64,000 nucleotides of DNA from Lacrimispora indolis DSM 755. GTDB lineage: Bacteria > Bacillota > Clostridia > Lachnospirales > Lachnospiraceae. Location: contig NZ_AZUI01000001.1 in the NCBI RefSeq assembly GCF_000526995.1, forward strand, positions 3,824,001-3,888,000. The letters are read 5' to 3'. The notes below the pieces were generated by a model. The model searched no databases, was not told where the DNA came from, and was given only the letters and a program-made list of their open reading frames with translations. Below, one piece after another: positions 55,875-63,964 of this stretch. The position numbers and the translations under genes were made by a program. Each line of letters opens with the position of its first letter. The stretch's first letter is position 1.

Positions 55875-56567
55875 ATGATTTATTCACAGGAAGTAGAAGA
55901 GATGTGCATAGTGGCACAGGGCGTTCATCACGGCGCAGCTCCAATCCCGGAAGAAGCAAAATGGGTAAAATCTAGAGAAGTTAAAGATATCTCCGGTCTG
56001 ACACATGGCGTTGGCTGGTGTGCTCCCCAGCAGGGCGCATGCAAGCTGACTCTTAACGTAAAAGAGGGCATTATTCAGGAAGCATTAGTAGAGACAATCG
56101 GATGTTCCGGTATGACACATTCCGCTGCTATGGCGGCTGAGATTTTACCGGGACTGACCGTTTTAGAAGCATTAAATACAGACCTTGTCTGTGATGCTAT
56201 CAATACAGCAATGAGAGAATTATTCTTACAGATCGCATACGGAAGAACCCAGAGCGCTTTCTCTGAAGACGGACTTCCTGTAGGTGCAGGTCTGGAAGAC
56301 TTAGGAAAGGGTCTCCGTTCACAGGTTGGAACCATGTACGGAACATTAAAGAAAGGTCCTCGTTATTTAGAGATGGCGGAAGGTTATGTAACCGGCATTG
56401 CTTTGGATGAAGAAGACCAGATTATTGGCTATCAGTTCGTAAGCCTTGGAAAGATGACAGACTTCATCAAGAAGGGCGATGATCCGAACACCGCTTGGGA
56501 AAAGGCTAAGGGACAGTACGGCCGCGTTGCAGATGCTGCTAAGATCATTGACCCAAGACATGAATAA
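55875..56567 (+). CDS. NifU-like iron-sulfur cluster assembly scaffold protein
   Basis: The 230-residue protein contains the NifU/IscU-like fold signature: VGWCAPQQGACKLTLNV, TIGCSGMTHSAAMAAEILPG and an alpha-helical C-terminal part. Its cysteines (WCAPQQGAC, GCSGMTHS) differ in spacing from classical IscU. It is annotated in many clostridia as a scaffold protein of Fe-S assembly and is almost always followed by a GGGtGRT protein, as here. AAAGGAG precedes the ATG. The actual cluster or partner is not established. Confidence 0.8.
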   Translation: MIYSQEVEEMCIVAQGVHHGAAPIPEEAKWVKSREVKDISGLTHGVGWCAPQQGACKLTLNVKEGIIQEALVETIGCSGMTHSAAMAAEILPGLTVLEALNTDLVCDAINTAMRELFLQIAYGRTQSAFSEDGLPVGAGLEDLGKGLRSQVGTMYGTLKKGPRYLEMAEGYVTGIALDEEDQIIGYQFVSLGKMTDFIKKGDDPNTAWEKAKGQYGRVADAAKIIDPRHE

Positions 56568-56642
56568 TCGGATTGTCGGAGGATTGTCGGTTACCGGTTA
56601 TCAAAGCGAAGATATTTGGCCAATAATAAGGAGGACAAGATA

Positions 56643-57653
56643 ATGGCATTATTTGAATCATATGAGAGAAGAATTGACAAAATCAATTCTGTATTAAACA
56701 GCTATGGTATTGCTTCAATTGAAGAAGCTGAGAAGATTACAAAAGATGCAGGCTTAGATGTGTACGAGCAGGTAAAAAAGATCCAGCCGATCTGCTTTGA
56801 GAATGCCTGTTGGGCTTACATAGTGGGAGCAGCTATCGCAATCAAGAAAGGCTGCAGAAAAGCATCTGACGCAGCAGCAGCCATTGGAGAGGGACTTCAG
56901 GCTTTCTGTATTCCAGGCTCCGTTGCAGACCAGCGTAAAGTAGGTCTGGGACATGGCAACTTAGGAAAGATGCTTCTGGAAGAAGAGACAGACTGCTTCT
57001 GTTTTTTAGCAGGCCATGAGTCCTTTGCGGCAGCAGAAGGTGCAATTGGTATTGCTGAGAAGGCAAACAAGGTTCGTCAGAATCCTTTAAGAGTTATCTT
57101 AAATGGTTTAGGAAAGGATGCAGCTCAGATCATTTCCAGAATCAATGGATTTACATACGTAGAAACAGAGATGGATTATTACACAGGCGAAGTAAAAGAG
57201 CTTTGGAGAAAGTCCTACTCAGAAGGTTTAAGAGCAAAAGTTAACTGCTACGGCGCAAACGATGTAACAGAAGGCGTTGCAGTTATGTGGAAGGAAGGCG
57301 TTGACGTTTCCATCACAGGCAACTCCACCAACCCAACCAGATTCCAGCATCCGGTAGCAGGAACCTATAAGAAGGAATGTACAGAGAAGGGCAAGAAATA
57401 TTTCTCCGTAGCTTCCGGCGGCGGTACAGGACGTACCCTTCATCCGGACAACATGGGAGCAGGCCCGGCTTCCTACGGTATGACTGATACCATGGGACGT
57501 ATGCACTCTGATGCCCAGTTCGCAGGTTCTTCTTCTGTTCCGGCTCACGTGGAAATGATGGGTCTGATCGGTATGGGCAATAACCCTATGGTCGGCGCTA
57601 CCGTTGCTGTGGCTGTTGGGATCGAGGAAAGTGCAAAAGAAGGTAAATTCTAA
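56643..57653 (+). CDS. GGGtGRT protein, function unknown
   Basis: The protein carries the name-giving motif SGGGTGRTLHPDNMGAGPAS (about residues 260-279) and ends with a glycine/methionine-rich region (GLIGMGNNPMVGATVAVAVG). Conserved cysteines include CFENACWAY and CFCFLAGHE. The 336-residue length is normal. ATG 56643 follows AAGGAGGAC. It is the constant partner of the NifU-like gene 76 bases upstream; the pair is well conserved in anaerobic Firmicutes but its biochemical role has not been assigned to my knowledge. Confidence 0.88.
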   Translation: MALFESYERRIDKINSVLNSYGIASIEEAEKITKDAGLDVYEQVKKIQPICFENACWAYIVGAAIAIKKGCRKASDAAAAIGEGLQAFCIPGSVADQRKVGLGHGNLGKMLLEEETDCFCFLAGHESFAAAEGAIGIAEKANKVRQNPLRVILNGLGKDAAQIISRINGFTYVETEMDYYTGEVKELWRKSYSEGLRAKVNCYGANDVTEGVAVMWKEGVDVSITGNSTNPTRFQHPVAGTYKKECTEKGKKYFSVASGGGTGRTLHPDNMGAGPASYGMTDTMGRMHSDAQFAGSSSVPAHVEMMGLIGMGNNPMVGATVAVAVGIEESAKEGKF

Positions 57654-59648: not shown

Positions 59649-60101
59649 TCAATTGGAGCCAGGTGGAAAAGAAGGTGTAGTCTCTATATTATTAAGCATT
59701 TTGTTTAAGGCTGATTTGAAGCTGTCAAGCTCCAGCTGGGTAAGACCATTAAGTACGTCTGACTTAAATTTTTCAGTGATTGCCAGCATCTCATCTTCAA
59801 TTTTTATCCCGTCATTTGTAAGCGTTAATAATTTCGTTCTTTTATCACTTTCATTGTTCACTCTATGCACCCACCCAAGCGCTTCCATCTTATCAATTAA
59901 CCGTACAACGCTTGGTTCTTTGAGTGACATCTTGTCCGATAATTGCTTTTGGGTAATCAAGTTGTTATTTTTTATATAATATAATGCAATCCACTGGGAT
60001 CTTGTAATATTATAATGATTTAATCTTTTTTCTAAACAATCGGCTAATTTCTTTGCACCTCTGCAGGTTATAAAAGCAATACAGTCATCTAAATCAAACA
60101 T
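59649..60101 (-). CDS. MarR-family regulator, possibly OhrR-like
   Basis: The 150-residue protein has a winged helix with ITQKQLSDKMSLKEPSVVRL, DKMEALGWVHRVNNESDKRT and KLLTLTNDG, all standard MarR features. A cysteine at residue 7 (FDLDDCIAFI) sits near the position of the redox-sensing cysteine of OhrR. It is the last gene of the OsmC/lipoyl operon, so redox control of that operon is a reasonable inference. A palindrome AAGTATA-C-TATACTT lies 59 bases upstream of its start. Confidence 0.8.
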   Translation of the reverse strand: MFDLDDCIAFITCRGAKKLADCLEKRLNHYNITRSQWIALYYIKNNNLITQKQLSDKMSLKEPSVVRLIDKMEALGWVHRVNNESDKRTKLLTLTNDGIKIEDEMLAITEKFKSDVLNGLTQLELDSFKSALNKMLNNIETTPSFPPGSN

Positions 60102-60137
60102 AATTCATCACCATCTAATTCCTTTTTGTTTATATAG

Positions 60138-60174
60138 ATTATATTAACATAAAAGATTTAAGTATACTATACTT
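60138..60174 (-). promoter_or_regulatory. Palindrome and promoter in front of the MarR gene
   Basis: AAGTATACTATACTT (60160-60174) is a perfect 7-bp inverted repeat around one base. On the minus strand it overlaps the -35 position of a TATAAT at 60143-60138. It is a likely operator for the MarR protein, allowing autoregulation. Confidence 0.6.
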
Positions 60175-60194
60175 TTTTTGCTGGCAGGACAGAA

Positions 60195-61116
60195 TTAAGA
60201 TAGTTTTAAATGGTTTAGAATATACAGGTCCATACACTCCCATATTGTTGCTTCGTCAAATTGTTTCTCACTTAGATTATTCTCACATATTCTGAAATCA
60301 TAAAGCTGCAGACTGTCTGTACTGATTTTGGCATTTTTTATTATCCCATCAGATATTGAGATGTGCACGGATACGTTTCCTAAAGAATATTTACGTTCCA
60401 ATACGATGTCGAAATTGGGTGATTGTGCATACAGCCAATCATAAGATGAGAGAAGTGATTCCAAAGGGGCATTAAAGTTAGTTTTATTAATATACTCTAT
60501 TTTTTTACTATCAAAGGTCTCGATGAATGCTTCTATTACTCTTTCTGTGGTTATTTTCTTACTGATTTCTGATAAGTTTATGACTCTGTTTTTAACGGAC
60601 TTAACTCCTTTGGATTGTAATTTTAATGTGGAGGGTGTGAGGGCTTTTTCTAACCGCCCAAAGTCCACATGAACTAAAATTGTGCCGTGATACATATAAT
60701 TATCGTTATCAGTATAATAAGCATGTCCGGAAAACTTCTGGTTTTTATACAGCAAATCATTTCTGCCGCTAAATTCACAATCAATACCGAGTCTCAACAT
60801 TACTGATTGGATGATTTCTATGAACTGGACATGACTTGCCAAGGCTTCTTTTGTAATAAAGGTAAAATTAACATTTCCCTTATCATGGTATACGGCCCCG
60901 CCTCCGGAAAACCTGCGAACCGCCTTGATATTCTGCTCCTTAAGGTATGAAAGATTACATTCGGCGTATAAGTTCTGGTTTCTTCCTATGATCACAGAAG
61001 CATCATTTTGCCATAGAAATAGATGGATATCTTCGTCAGAGGCCAGAAACAACTGATGTTCTGCAGCGATGTTAAAATATGGATCAAATTCTTTTGAAAC
61101 TATTATTTTTTTTCAT
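60195..61116 (-). CDS. lplA: Lipoate-protein ligase A, apparent frameshift at start
   Basis: This enzyme activates lipoate with ATP and attaches it to lipoyl domains. Diagnostic are RRFSGGGAVYHDKGNVNFTF, GRNDLLYKNQKFSGHAYY (with the catalytic-type lysine) and MYHGTILVHVDF; a C-terminal accessory domain follows. The conserved N-terminus (IVSKEFDPYFNIAAEHQLFL) is encoded, but the only suitable ATG (61116, overlapping the stop of the E3 gene as TAATG) is followed by eight A, which shifts the frame; seven would restore it. In-frame codons otherwise begin after a TGA. Slippage, an assembly error or a start at an internal TTG are all possible. It lies directly behind its likely substrate gene. Confidence 0.85.
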
Positions 61117-62798
61117 TATTGGTGCAAAGCTCCGATTCCAAGATCCAGTGCAGCTTCATGAATCACCTCACTGGTAGTTGGGTGTGAAAATATTGTCTCT
61201 GTTATTTGTTTTTCGGTAAATCCATTGGCAATCGCCAGAGTCAGTGTGCTTATTAAGGAGGAAGCATCAGGGCCTATAATAGATCCTCCGATAATCTTTT
61301 GAGAATCGTTGTTTTTCACCAGTTTTATAAAACCCCGTGGTTCATTCATTGTCAATGCTTTTCCATTTCCTTTAAATGAAAATCTGCCGATCGTGATATC
61401 CATTCCCTCTGCCATTGCTTTATCTTCGTTTATACCAACGCTTGCAATTTCCGGAGTGGTAAATATGACATTTGGAACGGCCGAGTAATCCATCTCTTTA
61501 CTTTTCCCTAATATATTGTCTACAGCAACAATAGCCTGATGAGAAGCCACGTGGGCCAGTTGAATAATGTCTGTTACGTCCCCAATTGCATAAATATGAT
61601 CAATATTTGTGCGCATGGAAGAATCTACCTGAATGCCTCTTCCCCTGCTGTTTAATGAGACATCGCTATGATTAAGTGATAGCCCATCTAAATCAGGCTC
61701 CCTGCCGATAGCTACTAAAACTTTGTCGCTTACAATCAAATGCTCACCATTTTTATCCTCATAGGTAATGACTGCCGCATCATTAATAGAACTTTGAATT
61801 TTCAACACCTTTGAGCCAGTGTGGATCTTAATTTTTGCTTCTTCTGCAATAGCGTGCATTTCATTGGATATGTCATTGTCAACCATGGTTAATATACGAT
61901 CCATAAATTCAATAACGTGTACATCAACGCCAAAATTTTTATAGATAAACGCAAATTCCATACCAATGACCCCGCCTCCAATAATTGCAATGGATTTAGG
62001 AAGATCCGTGTCAGACAGCGCGGTGGTGCTGTTTAATACAAAAGGCAGGTCCAGACCGGGGATTGCCGGTTTTGAAATTTTAGACCCCGTTGCTATGATA
62101 ATATCCTTTGCTTTAATCATGTAGCTTTGACTTCCATTCACTGCGACGGTATACATGTCAATAAAAGACGCCTGACCGGAGATTACATTGATTTCATTTT
62201 TACTCATGAGATAATCAATTCCGGAAACAAGCTTATCTTTTATCTGGTCCTTGCGGGCAATGACCTGCTTCATATTGACCGAGATTCTACCTTCGATTTC
62301 TACGCCGAAAATGGAAGCTGTGTTTGCATTATGGCAGATTTCAGAAGATTTTACAAGCGCCTTAGTAGGAATACAGCCGACATTTAAGCATGTTCCCCCT
62401 AACTCTGATTTTTCCACCAGAGTTACCGTTAAACCGTTTTTGGCCGCGTAAATAGCTGCCACGTATCCCCCTGGTCCTCCGCCGATTATAAGTAAATCCG
62501 TGGAGAGTTCCACAGAAGCTGTTTGCGCCATGTCTTTTAAATCTGATTCTGTTGATTTTCCAGCAACCAAACATTCCGTGATATCAAACAATTCAGTATT
62601 GGGGGCAATTTCGGAACCTTCTTCACATAATATTCTAAAAACTGCGCCATCCGATGTTGCCTTTATCGGGCGATTTCCTTTTGCTGTCTCTACTTGCACA
62701 AGGATGTCGCCGACAGCTACTTTATCGCCAACTTTTACATTTATTTTTCCTACTTTACTTGTTTTTCCGCCAGGGATTGCTGGCATTTTAATGATCAT
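61116..62798 (-). CDS. lpdA: Dihydrolipoyl dehydrogenase (E3) with fused N-terminal lipoyl domain
   Basis: This flavoenzyme oxidises or reduces lipoyl groups with NAD(H). Residues 1-75 are a lipoyl domain with the target lysine in VETAKGNRPIK (Lys40). After an Ala/Asp linker (about 80-110) comes the E3 core: FAD motif LLIIGGGPGGYVAAIYAAKN, redox disulfide GGTCLNVGCIPTK, NAD motif AIIGGGVIGMEFAFIY, FAD site YAIGDVTD and the C-terminal HPTTSEVIHEAA. ATG 62798 (560 residues) follows AGGAGA. No E1 or E2 subunits are nearby, so it is probably not part of a dehydrogenase complex. OsmC and LplA as neighbours suggest a peroxide-reducing system. Confidence 0.93.
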   Translation of the reverse strand: MIIKMPAIPGGKTSKVGKINVKVGDKVAVGDILVQVETAKGNRPIKATSDGAVFRILCEEGSEIAPNTELFDITECLVAGKSTESDLKDMAQTASVELSTDLLIIGGGPGGYVAAIYAAKNGLTVTLVEKSELGGTCLNVGCIPTKALVKSSEICHNANTASIFGVEIEGRISVNMKQVIARKDQIKDKLVSGIDYLMSKNEINVISGQASFIDMYTVAVNGSQSYMIKAKDIIIATGSKISKPAIPGLDLPFVLNSTTALSDTDLPKSIAIIGGGVIGMEFAFIYKNFGVDVHVIEFMDRILTMVDNDISNEMHAIAEEAKIKIHTGSKVLKIQSSINDAAVITYEDKNGEHLIVSDKVLVAIGREPDLDGLSLNHSDVSLNSRGRGIQVDSSMRTNIDHIYAIGDVTDIIQLAHVASHQAIVAVDNILGKSKEMDYSAVPNVIFTTPEIASVGINEDKAMAEGMDITIGRFSFKGNGKALTMNEPRGFIKLVKNNDSQKIIGGSIIGPDASSLISTLTLAIANGFTEKQITETIFSHPTTSEVIHEAALDLGIGALHQ

Positions 62799-62830
62799 GT
62801 GATATTCTCCTTTATTTTTTGTACGTATAA

Positions 62831-62863
62831 GCAAAAGAGCCAATTATAAAAAGGCTCTTTTGC
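62831..62863 (-). terminator. Hairpin between osmC-like and lpdA genes
   Basis: GCAAAAGAGCC (62831-62841) and GGCTCTTTTGC (62853-62863) are perfect 11-bp arms. On the minus strand TTTTGC follows the stem, so it may act as a partial terminator that lowers lpdA relative to the OsmC gene. Confidence 0.65.
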
Positions 62864-62879
62864 TGTATGTAGGTATTAA

Positions 62880-63320
62880 TTAGTCAATTGCCACACCTGA
62901 TAATACTAATTTCACACCATTAGCCAGGCAATCGCCTACAGGGCAGGTTTGCTCAATAAACTTTGCATAGTTTTCAATTTTCTCTTTGGGTTCATTGGTC
63001 TTAAAATGCATTACAAAGCGAATTTCCTGAAAGCCGTTTCTTACATTGGCTAAGCCCATGAAACCATCCGGATCCAAATCCCCTTCAAGTTCAACATGAA
63101 ATTCCTCAAATACGATGTCGTGGGCAGCTGCAAATGCGGTTGCTACGATTGTCTGGCAAGCTCCCAGGGCACATAAAAGAGCCTCCACAGGATTCATGAA
63201 AGCATCAGTGCCTCCCATTTCCTCAGGCTCATCAAGGAGTATTTTAAAACCTCTTGAATTTGTTTCAACTTGTAAACCATCGGATAATTTTGTTGCAGTA
63301 GCTTTGAATGTAGTCAGCAT
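62880..63320 (-). CDS. OsmC/Ohr-family peroxidase
   Basis: Proteins of this family reduce organic hydroperoxides with a pair of cysteines and are recharged by dihydrolipoyl groups. Cysteines are in ALLCALGACQTIVATAF (Cys50, Cys55) and EQTCPVGDCLANG (Cys126, Cys131); Cys55 and Cys126 match the expected catalytic pair. Glycine-rich GGTDAFMNPVEALLCALGAC (in parts) is the usual family start of helix 2. ATG 63320 (146 residues) follows AAAGGAG. It is first in the operon with the lipoyl E3 and LplA genes, which supports lipoyl-dependent turnover. Confidence 0.88.
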   Translation of the reverse strand: MLTTFKATATKLSDGLQVETNSRGFKILLDEPEEMGGTDAFMNPVEALLCALGACQTIVATAFAAAHDIVFEEFHVELEGDLDPDGFMGLANVRNGFQEIRFVMHFKTNEPKEKIENYAKFIEQTCPVGDCLANGVKLVLSGVAID

Positions 63321-63374
63321 AACACTATCTCCTTTCCACAGGTATTTGTCAATACCGTGATTAAATTTGTTAAT

Positions 63375-63403
63375 AATGTAACACATTTGATTTCTAAAAT
63401 CAA
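63375..63403 (-). promoter_or_regulatory. Promoter and operator-like repeat of the OsmC operon
   Basis: On the minus strand TTGATT (63403-63398) and TACATT (63380-63375) are 17 bases apart. The inverted repeat TTGATTT-CTA-AAATCAA (63387-63403) covers the -35, a suitable site for a MarR repressor. Confidence 0.6.
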
Positions 63404-63440
63404 TAGTTAGCTAAGTAAATATTTTCTTGTTTTTCATTTT

Positions 63441-63887
63441 TTGCATTCTCATATCATCATAACCAATGAATCTTTGAGGGCAGTCTACGATAAGTTTGCA
63501 AGTGCATTAAATCGTACGGAAATCAACGTATTAGGCGTGGCTGCAACGATGGCGGCTTATGCACATGGCCAGGAATGGCTGGATCATGTATTGGAAATTA
63601 TTGAGGATAACTACAGTTATTTAAGAGATATGTTAAATGAGAAGGCACCTGCTATCACGGTATGTGATCTTGAGGGCACTTATCTGGTTCTGCTTGATCT
63701 GCGAAAATGCGTGGATCAGAATTGTGTTAAGGAATTTATACAGGATAAATGCCGGCTCGCTGTTGATTATGGCGAGTGGTTTGGTGAGAATTTTAAAGGT
63801 TTTGTCCGTCTGAACCTTGCAACGGACCCTGCATATGTACGGCAGGCAGTGGATAATATTGTAAATCAGTTGAGTAATTGCAATTAG
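63441..63887 (+). pseudogene. C-terminal fragment of a PatB/MalY-type aminotransferase
   Basis: The frame contains only the C-terminal third of a PLP-dependent cystathionine beta-lyase/aminotransferase: INVLGVAATMAAYAHGQEWL, TYLVLLDLRKCVD, LAVDYGEWFGENFKGFVRLN and a typical final helix (VRQAVDNIVNQL). The PLP-binding lysine domain is missing and there is no ribosome site, so the gene is truncated. Its left edge abuts the OsmC operon promoter region, suggesting a deletion or rearrangement there. Confidence 0.75.
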
Positions 63888-63900
63888 GATGATATAGTAG

Positions 63901-63938
63901 ATGAAAGCATGGCAGCAGTGCTGCTGCCATGCTTTCAT
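63901..63938 (+). terminator. Perfect 18-bp hairpin after the aminotransferase fragment
   Basis: ATGAAAGCATGGCAGCAG (63901-63918) pairs exactly with 63921-63938 around TG; a T-rich stretch follows. Confidence 0.85.
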
Positions 63939-63964
63939 TAATTTTATATTTAAGGGAGTTTTTT

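What the first reader, a model, noticed from the sequence alone, without database searches (positions are those of the whole stretch)
59649..63403. Self-contained lipoyl-dependent peroxide defence operon
OsmC/Ohr peroxidases are recharged by dihydrolipoyl proteins and E3. Here one operon encodes OsmC, an E3 carrying its own lipoyl domain, the ligase that loads lipoate, and a MarR protein with an OhrR-like N-terminal cysteine. No 2-oxoacid dehydrogenase subunits are present. This would be a compact NADH-to-peroxide electron path independent of central metabolism.
Basis: partly seen in the sequence, partly recalled or inferred. Interest (0 to 1): 0.75.

Follow-up and report, generated by a model that had tools for sequence, protein, structure and literature searches.

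The report
Lipoate-powered OsmC redox operon
A small gene cluster in a bacterium related to Lacrimispora encodes an OsmC-family redox protein, a reductase that carries its own lipoic-acid arm, and the enzyme that loads the lipoic acid; the set recurs in distant bacteria, which makes a dedicated lipoate-driven detoxification pathway likely, though not yet proven.

Summary
On the minus strand lie an OsmC-family protein, a dihydrolipoyl dehydrogenase (E3) with an N-terminal lipoyl domain, a lipoate ligase (LplA) and a MarR regulator. The genome has no other OsmC, no E2 subunit, and no lipoyl synthase over its cut-off; its glycine-cleavage operon has a separate LplA and plain E3. The linkage is real: in a phylum sample, OsmC relatives at 65% identity or more lie beside a lipoyl-E3 in 7 of 7 other genomes, against 1 of 49 more distant ones. 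Gene order differs between lineages and the tree needs two origins. A palindrome at the osmC promoter is conserved and occurs exactly once in the genome. Best reading: NADH reduces E3, E3 its lipoyl arm, the arm recharges OsmC. Corrections: this OsmC is neither Ohr, classical OsmC nor YhfA proper, and lacks the Ohr catalytic Arg and Glu at their columns; MarR is not specifically OhrR-like; the lplA start is out of frame in this assembly; in five of six genomes of one lineage the set adjoins glycine-cleavage genes. The idea has precedents (Trichomonas OsmC with L and H proteins; Ohr with lipoyl proteins). New variant of a known kind; no activity was tested.

The parts
62880..63320 (-). osmC: OsmC-family protein, 146 aa; Cys55 and Cys126 as peroxidatic and resolving Cys; invariant Arg23 and Glu46
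   Evidence: PF02566 70 bits; invariant columns in a 22-row alignment; fold model
61116..62798 (-). lipoyl-E3: dihydrolipoyl dehydrogenase, 560 aa, N-terminal lipoyl domain (residues 3-73), lysine in ETAKGN, redox motif GGTCLNVGC
   Evidence: TIGR01350 531 bits, PF00364 42 bits; lysine aligned in 18 of 18 rows
60195..61115 (-). lplA: lipoate-protein ligase; the conserved ATG overlapping the E3 stop is out of frame with the rest in this assembly; next listed start is TTG at 61052
   Evidence: TIGR00545 288 bits over cut-off 280; starts compared; intact relatives exist
59649..60101 (-). marR: MarR-family regulator, 150 aa, invariant Cys7
   Evidence: MarR_2 54 bits; conserved beside lplA; Cys7 invariant
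63405..63416 (-). candidate MarR operator ACTTAGCTAACT, next to the TTGATT -35 box of osmC
   Evidence: conserved in relatives with MarR; one exact copy in the genome, at G000:C1:3887405-3887416
62799..62879 (-). osmC-E3 spacer with a 9-bp hairpin (AAAAGAGCC...GGCTCTTTT), possible attenuator or processing site
   Evidence: paired in 8 of 8 aligned rows; one compensatory change, 120 of 500 shuffles as high, so weak support

Best explanation
The cluster is a dedicated lipoyl-dependent detoxification module. LplA attaches scavenged lipoate to the lysine of the lipoyl domain fused to E3. E3 uses NADH to reduce its own lipoyl arm. The arm then reduces the Cys55-Cys126 disulfide of OsmC, which re-forms when OsmC reduces its substrate, most likely an organic hydroperoxide. 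MarR represses the osmC promoter at the TTAGCTAA palindrome and is released by an unknown, possibly redox, signal. Shown here: gene content, domains, Cys and Lys conservation, linkage, absence of an E2 and of a second OsmC. Inferred: the electron path, the substrate, the regulation.
For: Linkage of OsmC to a lipoyl-E3 in 9 of 9 close E3 relatives, in 7 of 7 other genus genomes that have this OsmC, and in 7 of 7 phylum-sample genomes at 65% identity or more, in two gene orders and with two origins on the tree. LplA in 8 of those 9, 7 of 7 and 6 of 7. Lipoyl Lys and both OsmC Cys invariant. No E2, no second OsmC, no lipoyl synthase over cut-off; the glycine-cleavage operon has a separate LplA and E3. 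An AhpD-type gene sits between E3 and OsmC in L061 and L062. Precedent for each step: Ohr and OsmC reduced by lipoyl systems incl. LpdA (passages), Trichomonas OsmC with L and H proteins (review passage).
Against: The Ohr catalytic Arg and Glu are absent at their columns, and biochemistry of the similar YhfA class is said to be open (passage). OsmC relatives at 57-63% identity in three Bacilli genomes are unlinked, as are 48 of 49 more distant ones, so OsmC proteins of this kin can work without such an E3. In 5 of the 6 LplA-E3-OsmC clusters glycine-cleavage genes are adjacent, so that E3 may serve them. One linked genome (L059) has no lplA in the cluster. The window's lplA start is out of frame. 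No OsmC-E3 fusion was seen among the 120 best E3 relatives listed.
Confidence: 0.66

Rival explanations
1. The electron path is right but the substrate is not a peroxide: OsmC of this group reduces another oxidant or a disulfide, persulfide or electrophile.
For: Ohr Arg and Glu columns not kept, own invariants Arg23 and Glu46. The neighbourhood outside the window has several sulfur amino-acid genes.
Against: The closest fold, the M. pneumoniae OsmC-like protein, also lacks the Glu, and MG427 of M. genitalium, which I recall as its ortholog, reduces organic hydroperoxides and H2O2 (review passage). SOD- and rubrerythrin-like ORFs lie close by outside the window (from the translations).
Confidence: 0.2
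2. The lipoyl-E3 mainly serves glycine cleavage or another lipoyl enzyme; OsmC is a co-regulated stress protein recharged by any lipoyl protein, for example GcvH.
For: 5 of 6 LplA-E3-OsmC clusters adjoin glycine-cleavage genes; Trichomonas OsmC uses the H protein (review passage).
Against: The window genome's glycine-cleavage operon has its own plain E3 and LplA 1.9 Mb away. In the window, in the 9 close E3 relatives, in the 7 genus loci, in L059, L064 and L077 no glycine-cleavage gene was detected in the stretch searched (window; the rest).
Confidence: 0.17
3. The cluster is decaying in this strain: lplA has lost its start, and the E3 is lipoylated, if at all, by the glycine-cleavage LplA.
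For: The conserved ATG is out of frame; a truncated C-S lyase remnant lies beside osmC.
Against: The rest of lplA, and E3, osmC and marR are open and closely conserved. The difference lies in an A run, where sequencing errors are common (recalled). A near-identical intact protein is in the database (its source is not shown).
Confidence: 0.15

Closest known systems
[quoted passage not shown] original title seen in reference lists; not read)
   Same: OsmC recharged through lipoate and an E3-type L protein without a 2-oxoacid dehydrogenase
   Different: There lipoyl carrier and E3 are two proteins (L and H). Here they are one, with a linked ligase and a regulator; bacterial gene cluster
Ohr/OsmC lipoyl-dependent peroxidases (passages; the 2010 paper was not held)
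   Same: OsmC fold, two Cys, reduced by lipoylated proteins and Lpd
   Different: Ohr Arg and Glu columns not kept; separate group on the tree; dedicated lipoyl-E3 instead of metabolic E2
SirTM operon of S. aureus and S. pyogenes: LplA2, GcvH-L, sirtuin, macrodomain, oxidoreductases (passages)
   Same: operon-dedicated lipoylation pair tied to oxidative stress
   Different: no OsmC mention in that paper (0 occurrences); GcvH-like carrier, ADP-ribosylation
M. tuberculosis lipoyl-dependent defence with AhpC/AhpD, E2 and E3 (cited in a passage; details recalled)
   Same: NADH to E3 to lipoyl to thiol peroxidase
   Different: uses a metabolic E2 and AhpD/AhpC; here an AhpD-like gene was seen only in L061 and L062 among the linked loci read
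E3 with N-terminal lipoyl domain of classical complexes (5u25, aligned to residues 3-552; the S. pneumoniae and Neisseria cases are recalled)
   Same: domain order lipoyl-E3
   Different: there part of pyruvate or 2-oxoglutarate dehydrogenase; here no E2 in the genome

Membership tests
Ohr/OsmC hydroperoxidase | OsmC fold | tested here: met
Ohr/OsmC hydroperoxidase | peroxidatic and resolving Cys | tested here: met
   Cys55 and Cys126 invariant in 22 rows and aligned to E. coli OsmC
Ohr/OsmC hydroperoxidase | catalytic Arg and Glu near the peroxidatic Cys | tested here: not met
   Val45 at the Glu column and Ser13 at the Ohr Arg column (by sequence alignment; the E. coli OsmC Arg column was not tested). 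Arg23 and Glu46 might substitute; geometry not inspected
Ohr/OsmC hydroperoxidase | peroxidase activity reduced by dihydrolipoyl | not testable with these tools
   bench assay needed
YhfA | groups with E. coli YhfA | tested here: not met
   YhfA groups with L110, L114, L130, L136, L140 outside the window's group (quick tree, long branches)
lipoyl-E3 (dihydrolipoyl dehydrogenase) | E3 equivalog score, redox disulfide, lipoyl domain with Lys | tested here: met
   TIGR01350 531 bits over 409; PF00364; Lys in 18 of 18 rows
lipoate-protein ligase | catalytic and C-terminal domain | tested here: met
   TIGR00545 288 bits over 280
lipoate-protein ligase | full-length open frame from a usual start | tested here: not met
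   relatives' ATG out of frame in the window
OhrR | score over the NCBIfam OhrR model | tested here: not met
   45.5 bits against 200 (a Vibrio-type model)
OhrR | sensing Cys at the OhrR position | tested here: inconclusive
   Cys7 invariant; the alignment ends 3-141 to 9-145 of 1z91 put it about two residues before OhrR Cys15 (position recalled); residue alignment not seen

The most novel reading that the evidence does not exclude
A further group of OsmC proteins, distinct from Ohr, OsmC and YhfA, has its own fused lipoyl-E3 reductase and lipoate ligase. In cells without an E2 or a lipoyl synthase, lipoic acid is then scavenged for glycine cleavage and for this detoxification module: a cofactor known from carbon metabolism serves largely as a dedicated electron arm of stress defence. 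The pairing arose at least twice and sometimes recruits an AhpD-like relay.
Probability: 0.55. Interest if true: 0.66.

Novelty: new variant of a known kind. Interest (0 to 1): 0.52.

Why it matters
If true, electron donor, carrier, loading enzyme, redox protein and regulator lie in one cluster that can be rebuilt in a tube, so the open question of how OsmC-type proteins outside Ohr are recharged becomes directly testable. It also points to a use of scavenged lipoate in Clostridia beyond carbon metabolism, and defines an OsmC subgroup by its partner instead of the generic label 'OsmC family protein'.

Tried and rejected
Chance neighbourhood: rejected by conservation and tree. OsmC-E3 fusions as direct proof: none among the 120 best E3 relatives listed, of 8000 scored. 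Known RNA family in the cluster: none; the one Rfam hit at E up to 1 is a weak mir-449 match outside the cluster (63896-63943). Promoter scan: 14 found, 14.1 expected. Terminator scan: 8 found, 3.2 expected, none of them in the osmC-E3 spacer, whose hairpin has a loop longer than the scan allows. Covariation of that hairpin is not decisive. A MarR regulon beyond this cluster: the 12-mer has 1 exact and 3 one-mismatch sites against 24 for the reversed control pattern. Residue-level comparison of the active site in 3D was not possible, as fold search gives ranges only. A second structure job was not used.

Papers: ten searches of the open-licence library. Six (15, 22, 40, 63, 81, 82) bore on this gene set; in their listings and in the passages I read I saw no description of it. 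The library lacks most subscription papers. Passages only were seen of seven papers: PMC4518038, PMC5962072, PMC8945050, PMC10332631, PMC9262362, PMC7946386, PMC3669245; none was read whole.

Results against the reading and rows dropped: of the 12 loci, L024-L026 are E3s of 37-52% identity in which no OsmC was detected; they are not in the '9 of 9'. In L019 lplA is split into two ORFs and in L021 the E3 frame is broken. Several distant OsmC loci stop at contig ends or lie close to one (L087, L089, L091, L094, L095, L096, L100, L108, L109, L111, L116), so absence there is only partly tested. The L022 upstream region was not interpretable and is not counted for the operator. For the tree I dropped L123, L124, L125, L127 and L135 (repeats of genes already in) and L022 (cut short); L153 and L155 were not added because their contig lengths equal those of L015 and L017.
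Full report
WHAT IS THERE. The window is positions 3,824,001-3,888,000 of a 6.38 Mb single-contig genome. Named relatives of its proteins are Lacrimispora and other Lachnospiraceae or Clostridiaceae. On the minus strand, in order of transcription, are osmC (63320-62880), a lipoyl-E3 gene (62798-61116), lplA (ending at 60195) and marR (60101-59649). All four score over curated cut-offs. The E3 is a full dihydrolipoyl dehydrogenase (TIGR01350, 531 bits) with one lipoyl domain at residues 3-73 (on the identical database protein P0121); the lipoyl lysine aligns in 18 of 18 rows. Upstream of osmC, on the other strand, is roughly the last 140 residues of a PatB-type C-S lyase, apparently a remnant.

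GENOME CONTEXT. Two LplA-type ligases score 38 bits each against PF03099; a third, stronger match I take to be a biotin ligase, unchecked. The second LplA lies in a glycine-cleavage operon (T, H, both P subunits, LplA, plain Lpd; named from the translations) at about 5.82 Mb. It is 39% identical to the window's LplA, and that Lpd is 37% identical to the E3 core. No E2 is found, OsmC is single-copy and lipoyl synthase is far below its cut-off, so lipoate is presumably scavenged. The two strongest PF00364 proteins carry the biotin motif EAMK. The lipoyl carriers recognised are GcvH and this E3; the weaker PF00364 hits were not resolved.

CONSERVATION. The E3 search found 12 loci in named genomes. 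Nine are close relatives (73% identity or more) and all nine have osmC upstream; eight have lplA and seven marR, the rest ending at contig ends. The cluster is patchy: in the family sample 3 of 299 genomes match, own included, and the other two are 36-40% identical and unlinked. In the phylum sample 57 of 398 match, own included. I fetched all 56 others: the 7 at 65% identity or more all lie beside a lipoyl-E3; of the 49 others one does (L077). Two architectures occur: OsmC-E3-(LplA)-MarR in the Lachnospirales relatives and in L059 (an unnamed 6.5 Mb genome, no lplA in the cluster), and LplA-E3-OsmC in six genomes whose E3 is about 40% identical. In five of those six, glycine-cleavage genes are adjacent. 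In the Bacilli-class sample (class of the L059 genome) 4 of 398 match at 1e-50: the L059 genome, and three at 57-63% identity that are unlinked. On a quick tree of 92 OsmC proteins the 22 linked ones need two changes (500 shuffles, mean 20, none as low; near-copies inflate this): a clade of 21 (SH-aLRT 94, just under the starred level) and L077. L077's E3 has two lipoyl domains. In L061 and L062 a CMD/AhpD-type protein with a CSYC motif lies between E3 and OsmC. Lists of three independent protein searches share contig length and organism name, for example Spirochaetaceae with 4823 bases (P0108, P0223, P0336) and Oscillospiraceae PP1C4 with 466394 (P0043, P0184, P0331). This hints at the set in spirochaetes; adjacency was not checked there.

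REGULATION. In all loci where marR was seen (window, L015-L019, L021, L023, L059, L153-L159) the region upstream of osmC holds (A/G)CTTAG(C/T)TAACT or, in L059, the perfect palindrome ACTTAGCTAAGT, next to a TTGA-type -35 box. L020, cut off before marR, has it too. In the clusters without MarR (L060-L065, L077) no TTAGCTAA lies upstream of osmC. The 12-mer occurs exactly once in the genome. It is a good candidate for a single-target operator; binding is inferred. Cys7 is invariant in nine aligned MarRs and in all seven genus loci. The best sequence relatives of known structure are Lin2960 and SlyA; OhrR ranks 17th. The osmC-E3 spacer hairpin is paired in 8 of 8 rows (at most 76% when slid), but one compensatory change, matched by 120 of 500 shuffles, is weak evidence. 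If real it could keep OsmC above E3 in amount (inference).

LPLA START. In relatives lplA begins with an ATG that overlaps the E3 stop. In this assembly that ATG is out of frame with the rest, at an A run; the next listed start, TTG at 61052, would remove a conserved N-terminal stretch. Intact copies exist, among them a near-identical 306-aa protein (source not shown). Sequencing error, slippage on the A run and real loss are all possible.

MECHANISM. NADH to FAD and the E3 disulfide, to the fused lipoyl arm, to the OsmC disulfide, to the substrate. Each step has precedent: Ohr and OsmC are reduced by lipoyl systems, LpdA among them (passages), and in Trichomonas OsmC receives electrons from lipoate through L and H proteins (review passage). 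Fusion of carrier and reductase, a linked ligase and a regulator make this a compact variant. The function is inferred, not shown.

VERDICT. Observation confirmed. Interest 0.52; new variant of a known kind.

Noticed in passing
63441-63887 (+): C-terminal remnant of a PatB-type C-S lyase beside osmC; a PatB-like 394-aa ORF that looks complete lies about 7 kb further, outside the window (L004 14919-16103).
   Followed up: partly
L004 9961-10596 (-) and 16233-16826 (-), outside the window: ORFs that read like a superoxide dismutase and a rubrerythrin close to the cluster, among sulfur amino-acid genes (from the translations only).
   Followed up: no
55875-57653 (+): A 230-aa protein with a weak NifU match followed by a GGGtGRT protein (PF14057, 637 bits): a pair of unclear function.
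   Followed up: no
63896-63943 (+): Strong hairpin after the C-S lyase remnant, listed by Rfam as a weak mir-449 match below its gathering score; probably a terminator.
   Followed up: no
L061 6803-7135 and L062 7026-7358: CMD/AhpD-type gene with CSYC between lipoyl-E3 and OsmC, a possible relay.
   Followed up: partly
L064 4859-6130 (-): DsbD/CcdA-like membrane protein and an AhpC/TSA-type lipoprotein-like ORF just beyond OsmC.
   Followed up: partly
L077 5012-6943 (-): E3 with two tandem lipoyl domains next to a divergently transcribed OsmC: the second origin of the pairing.
   Followed up: yes
L156-L159, downstream of marR: Two ORFs that read like hydrogenase maturases HydG and HydF (from the translations only).
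   Followed up: no
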